Shown: positions 22,965 to 50,492 of the stretch, piece after piece
Position numbering within the stretch: position 1 is the first letter of the stretch
How the letters are laid out: the number at the start of each line of letters is the position of its first letter
Origin: Glycine soja
Lineage: Eukaryota; Streptophyta; Magnoliopsida; Fabales; Fabaceae
Assembly: GCF_004193775.1 (NCBI RefSeq)
Contig: NC_041016.1
Location: 46,190,767-46,254,766, forward strand
Length of the DNA: 64,000 nt
Reading direction: 5' to 3'
Translations under genes and position numbers: made by a program
The notes under the pieces: generated by a model
The model's database searches: none
What the model saw: only the letters and a program-made list of their open reading frames with translations
Told to the model about the DNA's origin: nothing

Positions 22965-23165
22965 CACTACTACAAAAGCGCTCATTTACAACGTTGTTTC
23001 TAAGACGATTTTGAAGGACCGTCTTAGAATAGGAGGCGATGTCAATTTTGTAATTTGGGGAAGAAATAATGTTTTTTACGTCACATTCTAAGGCGGTTAG
23101 AAAGAACCGTCTTAGAATGTAAGGTAGTGGCAATTTTGTAATTAGGATAAATAAGTCAATGACAG
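22965..23165 (+). repeat. Left subterminal repeats of the giant CACTA
   Basis: After the terminus come paired inverted motifs: TTCTAAGACGATTTT with GACCGTCTTAGAAT (about 22998-23030), and TTCTAAGGCGGTT with AACCGTCTTAGAAT (about 23087-23118). A weaker GTCCGTCTTCG lies near 23176. These are the probable transposase-binding sites and match the larger array at the right end. Confidence 0.8.
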
Positions 23166-23169
23166 TTAT

Positions 23170-23477
23170 TGTGTAAGTCCGTCTTCGTACACCCGTTTAA
23201 TTGCGTCCCATATGCCCTGGCCCTATACGTGCTGAACTACTTTCAAACACTTAGCCGCTGCGCGTTCGACATTCTTCTGCCCTAGCTTACGTTGTTACCA
23301 TTGTGTCCCTCAAAGTGAGCTCGTGCAGTTCACCATTGTAGCTGTAACCCTTGTCTCCCTGAACCAGTGTAGCTGCTGTGAACGAATCGGCCATATTCGA
23401 ACACTGTAGCTACGTTGAAGCACCCTCTCCCTGAAACCCCTTTTGCCGTGGAAAGCACATCTTAGGTCGTCGTACAG
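23170..23477 (+). promoter_or_regulatory. Likely 5' leader exon of the CACTA element
   Basis: A stretch clearly richer in G and C than its surroundings, beginning just inside the subterminal repeats and ending at a near-perfect plant splice donor (TACAG followed by GTAAGT at 23478). There is no long open frame. Position and donor suggest a non-coding first exon of the element's plus-strand transcript, able to splice onto downstream exons, including captured ones. This is an inference from position and splice consensus only. Confidence 0.4.
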
Positions 23478-24719
23478 GTAAGTCATGAAACGATGTCTTC
23501 CTCAAAAGCTTAATGAATGTTTACATATGAAACTTTCATGGATTTGATTATGTTGTTGTTGAGTGCATGGGTGACTTAATTTGTATTTTGTCTGTCTGAC
23601 TTTTTTTTTGTGTCTGTACAATGAGAAGGAGTACTGAACAATGAAGATTGTCAGTGAAATTTTTAGGTTTAGTTTTTTTGTTTGTTTTTAATTTTTGATT
23701 GTTTTTAGTTTGTTTCCCCTCATATCCACAACAAGCGGTAGTTAGGTTCCCTCTTAGTAACTCATTCTGCCACCCACTATGCACCAACTAATTCCCACCC
23801 ACAACAAGTGGTAGGTCCCCTCATACTCACAAATGATGATGCTGACTGCATAGTTCCTTTACTTACAAAAATGTACTATAACCCACCTCCTTCATTTTTC
23901 ACAAGAATTTTTTGTTATTAGTTCATTTTTCCAACATCAATTTGAAAATTCTAAGACAATCAATGTAGATTAGAATGAATTTTTTATGACTCTTTGGAGT
24001 TTCTGCTTCCCACTTTATAAATTTTGAGTCAAGCAATCATCATACTAAATAAGACATCTGATTCTCAATAAAAAAAAAACCTGTAGTTGAGAAAATTCAG
24101 CTTAAAAAAGCTTTCGTAGAGAAATTTCAAATTACCAAGCTGAGAAAAACAAGCTAATCATAAGGGTTTTTTAAATCTTGGCAGACTGAAGATTACATCA
24201 ATAGAGTAGTATTGATATTCACCTGTAGTTGTTGGTGGTATCTTCTTCGTCAATAATGGCTCCTCACCCATGGATGCTTCAACATAATTCAGAGTAATAG
24301 GTGCCTTAATCAATATATGAAAATTAAAGCTATTGCAAGGTCAGAAAAATAAGTCAATGCACAAACTTAACATCCATAGTCCATACACAATAATCCACAG
24401 GTGACTGTTTGTGGGATAGTAGGTCCAATTCAAGGGCTTTCATCCTCAATTCCATGAATTTTTTTAAGCTCGTAAAACCTGTAATGAAGTGCACTACTAT
24501 ATTCACAAATTGTTGTTCAACATGAGATACAATTTAGTTCACAATCCCATCTAGATCCAGTTTTCAATTCAAGTCTATAGTAACAGAACTCTTCTAACAT
24601 ATATTTTGTGCAAAAGAAAAATAAATAATAATAATAACAATAAAATTATACCATTTAATTAAGCATTGTATCATAGTAAACATTGTATTGAACAATGTTA
24701 AAGGATTGTTGGTGAGCAC
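23478..24719. other. Element interior without recognised gene
   Basis: AT-rich DNA, no gene recognised. Short repeated phrases such as CCACAACAAG near 23726 and 23800 are present, but no clear structure. Confidence 0.4.
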
Positions 24720-26060
24720 TAAGTGTGTCTCACATTAGAGAAGTCTTTGTTAGACCCTTATTAAGTTTCTGGTAAAAACAACGAGGCTAAAGTTTTGTGT
24801 CTGTGCAATGTTCGCTACCGAAAAGTGTACCGAATCGCACAAGTAGTATAAAACGGTAAGAACCAAGTATCGAACTCTCAGGGAACTTGTGTTATCTGGC
24901 AAGCTATTTCGATAAATAGGCGTCTAGTATGAAAATATGATTGTGGTTATGAACAAGTATTTAAACTATCTAGGCAAAAAGAAAGAAAATCACGCAAGAC
25001 AAATACTGTGTAAAAACAGGTAGAGAATGTGTTGGTCTTCCTCATAGGTTCTTGATGCTAAAAAGGATGTTCTCTATTTAATAATGCTCATGCGTTCCTA
25101 TGTTGTCTCCTAGACTGCTAGACCCCGACTCCTCATGATAGCCTAGCCTAGTCCTGATCAAGCCTCGTCCGCAGATTCCTCTTGTAAGACTAAACTCAAC
25201 CAAGACCGCATTAAGACACACATACACAACTAAGTTCTTGTACCCCGATTCCTTGTGATAGCACAACAATTTAGTTCCGTACTATCAAGGACTTTAGAAT
25301 CAGACCAGTTTCCACTGTTGAATGACCCTAACAAAGCATGCATCTACGTGATCAAGGTAAAAGCACACTGGAATGAAAAGCAGATAGCATAGAGAACACA
25401 CAAAACATCATTACATAGATAGAAATATATTTACATCAGGTACCTACAGGGAAGATCCAACAAAGGATTTAGCTTTCCATAGTCCAGAAACCTCCTTTAC
25501 AACAAAGAGAAGAACAAGATGAAAGACTGCAAAAACACAAGTGGTGAGGATGTCTCCTTCACCTCTAGGATCTCATAATCACTCACAAACTCACAAACTC
25601 ATCTCAATCACATCTCTGCAGATCTTCACACAGCAAAATCTATTAGAACTCTCTGGAACTTGGACCTTTCTCTCTCTAGAACCTTCGTGCATGCAGAGCT
25701 TCTCTAGAAAAGTGCCAAACTCCCTTTGCAAATATCATTTCAGGCTTAAATAGGTGGCCTTGTTCATGCTCGTGCGCTTAGCGCAGATCTAGATCGCTTA
25801 GCACACATAAGTGGATTTTGGCTTAGCGCGCTTGTTTCGCTTAGCGGATGAGCTGAAGCGGTGCACTTGATGACCTGGAGTGGTGCGCTTAGCGAACTTG
25901 ACAGCTCATCTTCTTCTGGATTCTTCCTCGCGCTTAGCCACTAAAGGTTGTACTTAGCGAATTCTCGCTAAGCCAGCAGCTTGGCTTAGCGAAAGAGTGA
26001 AAAACAACACTTTGCCAAAGTTGCATATTTAACCTGAAATTGAGAGAAATTGATTATTAA
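24720..26060. mobile_element. Non-coding repeat with CTTAGCG motif cluster (probable LTR-type remnant)
   Basis: No protein-coding content. The left part has the phrase GTGTACCGAATCGCACAAG followed by TATAAAACGGTAAG, which I associate with dispersed non-autonomous soybean retroelements. At 25770-26000 a short motif near GCGCTTAGCG recurs at least eight times in the direct orientation and at least once reversed (CGCTAAGC near 25963). Borders are uncertain and no target duplication was found. Confidence 0.4.
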
Positions 26061-48343: not shown

Positions 48344-49600
48344 GTGAGCAGAAGCATTTTTTTTACTAAACCTTTGTTATCATCATTTATTCTGTCTAGG
48401 CTTGAACATTATAAGCTCCACATACGGGATTATATTTATTTAATTGAAATCATTGCCATGGTGTTGCTTACAAACTGATTTTAGGTCCAGTAGTTTTCAT
48501 CTATCATTATGCTTGATTCCTTAATCAGCGCAAGATATTTGAACCATTATGCTTACTCATTGATGATGCATGGGATATTCCAATTTGCTTATCTATTTTG
48601 ATTATTACCTAATTGTTTTTTTTTACATCTATTGGTTAATTTTGGTGATTGATCTTTTCTTGGAAACTTATAAATGGTAATTGTACTTAAGGTTCGTGCT
48701 TCTGCATTGCTTATGCTTTGAAGACCTACAAAAGTATTTGCTTATCAAATCCGCTTGTCCCTTGAACCTCAATGGAGAAGATGTTATAGGACAGGTATAA
48801 ATTTTCCTTCCCCCCCTGAATTTCCAAGAATCGATGTCATTATTTTTATTCTACTAAAGTACTGATGTGATATTTAATAAATGTGCACTTTAGTCTACTT
48901 CATGCTTTGCCTGTTGGAGATGTGATGTTTTTGAATCAATTGTTTTAAAATGCTAGATAAGATATTAGCTAATATCTTATCTGCTATAGCAGTGACTAGT
49001 GAGTAGCTCTTCAATGCTTAGGCAATTACTTAGTTGCATTACCTTCAATTTTGCACATATCAGAAACAAAATTAACATGGAAAACCTTATGTAACTTGAG
49101 TGTAACAACTGATGAAGGTCTCAGTCATCTAAATGCATGCACAGATACTAATCATATAACAGTCAACTGATGAAGGTTTCAGCAGATTTCATTTGTGAAA
49201 TTTCTGAAAAACAACATAATGTATTACCATTTATTTGCTAGCAGATGAGTCATTCTTAGGTTCAACTCTACTAACCATATAACAGTTCGGATTTCAACCT
49301 TTTTTATCTGTGTGAATGGATCATGCATGTTCACTGCCACCCGTTTAAATCTGTAATGAATAATAACGTGGGAAACATATATATTTACAATTTACTGATG
49401 CAAACTACAATTTGCTTTATTTGCAGGATGCTTGGATACTAGACAATTGGGTAAATTGTGTGTTGTTAAAATATCATTTATTTCATTTGCGTGTTAAGAA
49501 TTTGGAGTAAAATCATATTGTACGTGCTATTGTGTTGTATAGTATTTCAACCATTACTTATTACATACATGTTATGAAGCTTACAAATTGTGTAATGGTC
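48344..49600. other. Element interior with possible further exon
   Basis: Mostly non-coding. 48680-48797 ends in GGACAG-GTATAA, a good donor, and contains a short coding-like stretch (FAYQIRLSLEPQWRR) that I cannot place. Nothing else recognised. Confidence 0.35.
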
Positions 49601-49700
49601 ATATATATATATATATATATATATATATATATATATATATATATATATATATATATATATATATATATATATATATATATATATATATATATATATATAT
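49601..49700. repeat. Perfect (AT)50 microsatellite
   Basis: One hundred bases of uninterrupted AT dinucleotide. Such tracts are unstable in length and can extrude hairpins; assembly length may be unreliable. It lies about 300 bp inside the right subterminal repeats of the giant CACTA. Confidence 0.97.
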
Positions 49701-49899
49701 ACTTGACATTAGTCTCATTTATTGTGTAAATTATTGTAATATGTAATTAAATGATTTTATAATTGTTGAAATTCATGATCATATTTTTTTCTTTCCATCA
49801 ATGTACAGTGTCTTGCTTAAAGCTACCAAGGATCACAAAAAAAAAAAGAACACCCAAAAAAAACCAAAAGAAATAAAATAAAACAACACCAAAAAAAAT

Positions 49900-50492
49900 C
49901 CTATCTAAGACGGTTATTAATAACCGTCTTAAAATTGTAGAGAAACTAAAGTGATTATTAGAATAACCGTTGTAGAAAAGCAACAACAATAATGTTATTC
50001 TAAGACGGTTATTCCAATAATCGTCTTAGTTTATCCAACATTCTAAGACGGTTATTATAATAACTGTCTTAGATTTGTAATGATGACGAGGACATCTTAA
50101 GACGGTTATTCTGATAACCGTCTTAGTATGTCTAACTTTCTAAGACGGTAATTGTAATAATCGTCTTAGATTTGACATGTTGATGATGACATATTAAGAC
50201 GGTTATTCTGAAAATCGTCTTATTATCTATTACATTCTAAGACGGTTATTGTAATAACCATCTTAGAAAGTTAGTCGTACTAAGACGGGTTACTACAAAA
50301 AAGCTCATTCGAAGAGGAAACATTCTAAGACAATTATTAAATAATTGTCTTAGAAAACTCTACTTTGTAAGATGGTTACAAAACTATCGTTATAAGTGTG
50401 TTGTAATTTTACGATGTGGCTTTTTACAACGGTTCAAAACCGTCGTATAGGGTCCTATATGACCGACTTAAAATATTCTAATTTTAGTAGTG
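49900..50492 (-). repeat. Right subterminal repeats and terminus of the giant CACTA
   Basis: A dense array, in both orientations, of units near TAAGACGGTTATT and AATAACCGTCTTA (for example about 49908-49932, 50002-50028, 50099-50127, 50236-50270), with degraded copies towards the end. The terminus read on the minus strand is CACTACTAAAATTAG at 50492. The motif is the same as at the left end, but the right array is about three times longer. Confidence 0.85.

What the first reader, a model, noticed from the sequence alone, without database searches (positions are those of the whole stretch)
22965..50492. A 27.5-kb CACTA element that has collected at least five host genes
Ends, ATT target duplication and shared TAAGACGG subterminal repeats define one element holding its own TNP2 and second transposase gene plus pieces of IQD, CONSTANS-like B-box, KCBP, HIPP and S-acyltransferase genes. 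Several pieces keep introns and splice sites, so capture was at DNA level. Gene-carrying CACTA elements are known in soybean, but this number in one transposase-bearing copy is unusual.
Basis: partly seen in the sequence, partly recalled or inferred. Interest (0 to 1): 0.9.

Follow-up and report, generated by a model that had tools for sequence, protein, structure and literature searches.

The report
Soybean jumping gene carrying host-gene scraps
A large, probably dead CACTA transposon in soybean has swept up pieces of about five unrelated plant genes; soybeans are already known to carry such elements, but this one also holds transposase remnants and has been annotated in public genomes as chimeric protein-coding genes.

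Summary
Positions 22,965-50,492 (27,528 bp) carry CACTA ends, an ATT duplication and subterminal TAAGACGG repeats absent from the rest of the window. Fragments of IQD, CONSTANS-like-16, KCBP/KIN-14E and HIPP genes are supported by Glycine or other legume proteins. The fifth matches a Vicia faba protein that I call an S-acyltransferase from memory. KCBP and IQD pieces keep introns, so capture was from DNA. Corrections: the transposase gene has a frameshift and two stops, so the copy is not autonomous as read; a Ty1/copia piece sits inside; a left-type end lies within the right end, a hint of hybrid origin. New: two annotated Glycine proteins are chimeras built from KCBP, HIPP and S-acyltransferase pieces, and one model's last intron crosses the element's right border. 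It is a large new member of a known kind (Tgm-Express1, Tpn1, Pack-CACTA). No soybean genome could be searched: the genome search was busy in all 8 attempts.

The parts
22903..22961 (+). left copy of a 59-bp direct repeat outside the element (tandem target unit 1)
   Evidence: 54 of 59 columns identical to 50,493-50,550; 25-base core only twice in window
22962..22964 (.). ATT target-site duplication, left copy
22965..22977 (+). left terminal inverted repeat CACTACTACAAAA
22998..23146 (+). left subterminal repeats (TCTAAGACGG palindromes)
26436..27572 (+). Ty1/copia polyprotein remnant inside the element (PF22936, PF25597)
   Evidence: PF22936 is just below its curated cut-off
27978..28605 (-). 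IQD (IQ67-domain) gene fragment, one intron of about 100 bp retained, donor side eroded
   Evidence: P0188 residues 20-63 (26/44) and, in a 42% block that spans the intron, 75-256; best block 159-197, 30/39; sub-threshold PF00612 match; intron read
30242..30635 (-). CONSTANS-like 16 fragment: residues 1-89 joined to 254-295, middle deleted
   Evidence: 72/89 and 31/42 identical to G. max P0121
32382..35387 (+). TNP2 transposase pseudogene: PF13963, PF02992, PF13960 (DUF4218), PF13952 (DUF4216)
   Evidence: frameshift near 33,400 and stops at 33,682-33,684 and 34,510-34,512
35669..37323 (+). putative second CACTA ORF, broken (recalled similarity only)
   Evidence: translations; no Pfam match above cut-off in 8 pieces
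41313..42698 (+). KCBP / KIN-14E fragment, five coding blocks within residues 53-401 of G. max P0004, introns retained, two blocks with a stop codon
   Evidence: 69/74 identical in the best block; intron 41,597-41,711 begins GT and ends AG; stops
43611..43829 (+). HIPP7-like heavy-metal-associated protein fragment (43,611-43,706 only by the gene models)
   Evidence: 33/41 identical to P0243 at 43,707-43,829; weak PF00403
44472..48312 (+). S-acyltransferase (PAT-like) N-terminal fragment in separated blocks 44,472-44,599, 47,973-48,190, 48,235-48,312
   Evidence: matches Vicia faba P0287 (37/53 at 47,973-48,131; 19/26 at 44,481-44,558); protein family name recalled
40666..48797 (+). stretch holding the exons of the annotated chimeric proteins P0242 (G. 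max; all but its last exon) and P0241 (G. soja)
   Evidence: exon maps
53006..53044 (+). last exon of the P0242 gene model, outside the element: the model's last intron 48,216-53,005 crosses the right border
   Evidence: 11 of 12 residues identical
49904..50354 (+). right subterminal repeats
50288..50360 (+). embedded left-type CACTA end, first three bases not matching
   Evidence: 17 specified bases of a 19-base pattern exact, 0.01 matches expected; alignment
50480..50492 (-). right terminal inverted repeat (CACTACTAAAATT read inward)
50493..50495 (.). ATT target-site duplication, right copy (first bases of tandem unit 2)
50493..50550 (+). right copy of the 59-bp direct repeat (tandem target unit 2)

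Best explanation
A single CACTA (En/Spm) DNA transposon, 27,528 bp, inserted three bases into the second unit of a 59-bp tandem duplication in a Glycine chromosome, giving the ATT duplication. Before or after arriving it collected genomic pieces of at least four, probably five, host genes, lying on both sides of its transposase region. Inferred: it was once moved by its own or a related TNP2 transposase that cut at the CACTA termini while a second protein bound the subterminal TAAGACGG palindromes. Shown: its TNP2 gene is now broken, so it could move only if a relative supplied transposase. Inferred: some captured fragments keep usable splice sites, so transcripts started in or near it can join unrelated exons, as in Tgm-Express1; two annotated Glycine proteins have this form, but I saw no RNA evidence.
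For: Ends, ATT and subterminal repeats; flanking 59-bp repeat pairing the outer ends; TNP2-type domains; TNP2 frameshift and stops; host homologies; GT-AG intron between KCBP blocks and an intron in IQD; chimeric proteins P0241 and P0242 mapping to 40,666-48,797, P0242 with a last exon at 53,006 beyond the border. P0242 also suggests the same insertion and right flank in the G. max assemblies behind it.
Against: A left-type end inside the right end shows the structure is not a simple one. No empty site, sister copy or parent gene DNA could be examined (genome search did not complete). The second transposase gene is unconfirmed. The TIR is short and imperfect. The IQD intron has lost a clear donor site.
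Confidence: 0.8

Rival explanations
1. Hybrid element: two neighbouring CACTA relatives fused after complementary terminal deletions (the model reported for Arabidopsis Pack-CACTA), so the left end belongs to one parent and the right terminal 205 bp, with its own left-end remnant at 50,288, to another; the compound then moved as one unit.
For: The left-type end at 50,288-50,360 matches the true left end over about 65 bp but its first three bases do not match, as at a deletion junction. The mechanism is described in passages of PMC13317346.
Against: No host DNA lies between the two vestiges; the remnant could be a later duplication or a trait of every family member. No relatives could be compared.
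Confidence: 0.3
2. Some host-gene pieces were brought in by other elements (Helitron, MULE or another CACTA) nested in this one rather than captured by the CACTA itself.
For: The interior is mosaic: a Ty1/copia remnant lies within about 400 bp of the IQD piece, tandem arrays lie between fragments, and in the neighbouring region another CACTA end interrupts a TNP2 gene.
Against: No pair of long direct or inverted repeats enclosing a fragment appeared in the self-comparison (matches of 50 bp or more), nor further CACTA end pairs. Short TIRs of other families and Helitron ends were not tested.
Confidence: 0.25
3. The outer ends belong to two separate elements and only look paired.
For: Imperfect TIRs; an internal left-type end exists.
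Against: Identical ATT, a shared subterminal motif found nowhere else in the window, and a flanking 59-bp repeat on both sides.
Confidence: 0.07

Closest known systems
Tgm-Express1 (soybean wp allele, PMC1947982: abstract and Background read)
   Same: Soybean CACTA element with pieces of five unrelated host genes, exons and introns kept, chimeric splicing
   Different: 5.7 kb in that paper; the one here is 27.5 kb with a TNP2 pseudogene, a different subterminal motif (TAAGACGG; PMC2613891 gives Tgm-Express1 the TTGGCAG-type consensus) and different host genes
Tgmt*/Tgm9 (PMC2613891: abstract, sections 7 and 13 read)
   Same: Large transposase-bearing soybean CACTA, 3-bp duplication, few subterminal repeats at one end and many at the other
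   Different: 20.5 kb, expressed dual-function gene; no captured host genes mentioned for it in the parts read; TTGGCAG absent from the ends here
Tpn1 family of Ipomoea nil (PMC5105172: passages read)
   Same: CACTA family that captures genic regions and makes chimeric transcripts; longest copy 40,619 bp
   Different: Other species; few transposase-bearing copies are named, and the passages read do not say that these carry several host genes
Pack-CACTA (PMC8903248, PMC13317346: passages read)
   Same: Host coding DNA from several loci between CACTA ends
   Different: Defined as lacking transposase matches; this copy has one
Transposase-bearing CACTA with captured fragments in Chenopodium (PMC8978399: passages read)
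   Same: Transposase domains and captured gene pieces in one element
   Different: One captured gene per element in the cases read

Membership tests
CACTA (En/Spm) superfamily | CACTA termini in inverted orientation | tested here: met
   22,965 and 50,492; imperfect beyond CACTACTA
CACTA (En/Spm) superfamily | 3-bp target-site duplication | tested here: met
   ATT on both sides
CACTA (En/Spm) superfamily | TNP2-type transposase (PF02992) | tested here: met
   gene disrupted
CACTA (En/Spm) superfamily | subterminal repeats at both ends | tested here: met
CACTA (En/Spm) superfamily | second (TnpA/TNP1-like) gene | tested here: inconclusive
   no Pfam match above cut-off in 8 pieces; recalled similarity only
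Pack-CACTA (packFinder definition) | host coding DNA between CACTA ends | tested here: met
Pack-CACTA (packFinder definition) | no transposase match inside | tested here: not met
Tgmt*/Tgm-Express1 subfamily | subterminal motif TTGGCAG | tested here: not met
   7 exact matches in window, 7.8 expected, none within 1.2 kb of either end
autonomous CACTA | intact transposase reading frame | tested here: not met
   frameshift and two stops
autonomous CACTA | transposition or expression | not testable with these tools
   no RNA or genetic data

The most novel reading that the evidence does not exclude
A fusion of two CACTA relatives that works as an exon-shuffling nursery: its captured exons are spliced together and onto host DNA beyond its right border, and this chimeric gene is transcribed and shared by wild and cultivated soybean.
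Probability: 0.12. Interest if true: 0.6.

Novelty: new member of a known kind. Interest (0 to 1): 0.35.

Why it matters
It is a clear case of a transposon mixing exons of unrelated genes, and shows how such mosaics enter public annotation as 'hypothetical proteins'. If chimeric transcripts exist, including ones that splice across the border, it is a test bed for how gene capture makes new genes. The embedded left-type end is a specific, checkable trace for the hybrid-fusion model of capture.

Tried and rejected
Two independent elements: rejected because of ATT, the motif distribution and the flanking repeat. A separate 205-bp element at 50,288-50,492: unlikely, since its first three bases do not match and ACG, not ATT, precedes it. 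A right-type end at 29,142 (one mismatch) and end-like hits at 28,465 and 35,109: treated as chance or coding sequence; the repeat scan listed no close subterminal-type match within 500 bases of them except one 3-mismatch hit at 28,060. RNA-level capture: rejected for KCBP and IQD (introns present). An autonomous element: rejected. A plasmid search with 5,000 bases of the element (22,965-27,964) gave nothing, as expected for a plant. Six-frame Pfam scans of 22-52 kb were empty in 4 of 6 frames (the hits came). End and repeat words searched as text gave 3 unrelated papers.

P0241 (G. soja) differs from the window by four replacements in its well-mapped exons (three; an A/V seen by comparing), by about four more in the exon at about 48,003-48,080, and by an apparent indel or splice difference near 48,716. 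Whether it is an allele or a sister copy is unsettled.
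Full report
What is there. The left end CACTACTACAAAA begins at 22,965 after ATT, and the right end closes at 50,492 with ...TTTTAGTAGTG followed by ATT. TAAGACGG occurs 12 times in the window, 2 near the left end and 10 near the right, 0.59 expected. The left 150 bp and the right 600 bp carry the same TCTAAGACGG palindromes.

The outer ends are a pair. Self-comparison gave an unexpected match between the outside flanks. Aligned, 22,903-22,961 and 50,493-50,550 agree at 54 of 59 columns (counted by me); the local score is 48 against a maximum of 18.5 in up to 500 random pairs of 80-mers (pairs closer than 200 bases were skipped). 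A 25-base core occurs exactly twice in the window, with no further match at up to 3 mismatches. The simplest reading is a pre-existing 59-bp tandem dimer with the element inserted three bases into unit 2. How the dimer arose is unknown; a long target duplication made by the transposon itself is not favoured, because ATT separates the left copy from the element.

A complication. TACTACAAAANNGCTCATT occurs at 22,968 and at 50,291 and nowhere else in the window, even with two mismatches; 0.01 expected. The copy at 50,288-50,360 is a left-type end facing right, 205 bp from the right terminus, with GGT in place of CAC. The true left end aligns to it with local score 26, but to the reversed true right end with only 16. 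It is preceded by ACG, not ATT. I read it as a vestige of a second family member, possibly from a fusion event, but the family could not be surveyed.

Transposase region. Six-frame Pfam scans found on + PF13963 (32,382-32,603), PF02992 in two frames (33,207-33,410 and 33,400-33,843), DUF4218 (34,375-34,683) and DUF4216 (35,181-35,387); coordinates are converted from protein positions. The PF02992 match changes frame near 33,400. Alignment to the second TNP2 copy in the window (6.1-8.6 kb, minus strand; 1,701 of 2,251 columns identical) shows a one-base difference there, and the printed codons show TAA at 33,682-33,684 and TGA at 34,510-34,512, the latter in the DUF4218 stretch. The copy is therefore not autonomous as read. 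A downstream broken frame set (35.7-37.3 kb) resembles, from memory only, the usual second ORF of soybean CACTA elements; Pfam gave nothing above a cut-off.

Host fragments. KCBP: the homology search with 41,083-44,082 (residues 150-300) returned 168 proteins, 120 listed, G. max KIN-14E among the best at 93%; five blocks from 41,313 to 42,698 map in order to residues 53-401 of P0004. Two of them are contiguous at residue 201 but separated by 41,597-41,711, which begins GT and ends AG: an intron. Two blocks contain a stop codon. COL: 72 of 89 and 31 of 42 residues match G. max P0121, with residues 90-253 missing. IQD: 30 of 39 residues match P0188 in the best block and 26 of 44 in another; an intron of about 100 bp is present, with an AG before the second exon but no clear GT after the first. 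In the 120 of 173 hits that were listed I saw only two IQD proteins, so the closest Glycine parent was not seen. HIPP: 33 of 41 match P0243. S-acyltransferase: 37 of 53 residues at 47,973-48,131 and 19 of 26 at 44,481-44,558 match Vicia faba P0287. P0287 has no DHHC domain match at E up to 1, so the family name is recalled from its N-terminal sequence. A Ty1/copia remnant is a transposon piece, not a host gene.

Chimeric gene models. One search returned two named Glycine proteins of 214 and 215 aa, 97% and 100% identical to the window over 10% of the query. P0242 (G. max, JHK82_043649; the listing also names JHK86_043535) maps block by block to 41,328-41,387, 43,220-43,309, 43,614-43,793, 44,475-44,552, 47,669-47,740 and 48,078-48,215 with no replacement in the mapped residues; residue 134, at a junction, was not mapped. 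Its last 12 residues lie at 53,006-53,041 with one replacement, preceded by AG and followed by TGA. The implied last intron, 48,216-53,005, begins with GT and spans the right border at 50,492. This suggests that the element and its right flank are contiguous in the assemblies behind P0242. P0241 (G. soja, JHK87_043445) uses a different exon set, 40,666 to 48,797, and differs by replacements and an indel or splice difference. Both are annotations; I saw no RNA evidence.

Comparison with print. Tgm-Express1 is a 5.7-kb soybean CACTA composed of five host gene fragments with chimeric splicing (PMC1947982, abstract and Background). Tgmt* is a 20.5-kb putatively autonomous soybean CACTA (PMC2613891, abstract and sections 7 and 13). 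TgmR* is 13 kb (PMC4219821, passages). Tpn1 elements reach 40,619 bp and the family captures genes (PMC5105172, passages). [quoted passage not shown]). In wheat 3B, 140 CACTA capture events were counted (PMC4290129, passages). Transposase-bearing Chenopodium CACTA elements hold captured fragments (PMC8978399, passages). In the parts I read I found no single copy with both TNP2 and five host genes, but those surveys do not count that class in the passages seen, and the answered searches cover open-licence papers only; one search timed out.

Verdict. Real, correctly delimited, and an instructive example. It belongs to a known kind, with a broken transposase, so interest is moderate. The unusual points are the embedded left-type end, the insertion at a tandem-repeat junction, and the chimeric annotated proteins, one of which crosses the border.

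Noticed in passing
58636-63385 (-): Apparently intact young Ty1/copia retrotransposon: 330-bp LTRs 99.7% identical, ATGTT on both sides, one open frame of 1,336 aa with gag, integrase and reverse transcriptase.
   Followed up: partly
12711-18140 (-): Second copia element, LTR-like repeats 98.3% identical, long gag and pol frames, between the neighbouring TNP2 copy and the CACTA end at 21,001.
   Followed up: partly
6061-21001: Another CACTA element, probably in reverse: left-type end at 21,001 and TNP2 on the minus strand at about 8.6-6.1 kb, cut at 6,151 by what looks like the end of a third CACTA element. No left end with the matching GCA was found for the third one among the 6 CACTA sites in 1-6,100 on the plus strand.
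   Followed up: partly
21655-22442 (+): Decayed HSP70 fragment between two left-type CACTA ends that face away from each other, just outside the element.
   Followed up: no
54451-55851 (-): Open 466-codon frame of a Transferase-family protein (PF02458, E 3e-96; BAHD acyltransferase from memory), about 4 kb from the element's right border.
   Followed up: no
1657-4329 (+): LINE-like reverse transcriptase frames (PF00078 at 1,657-3,438).
   Followed up: no
39750-40141: A 51-bp tandem array flanked by a 60-bp direct repeat inside the element, origin unknown.
   Followed up: no
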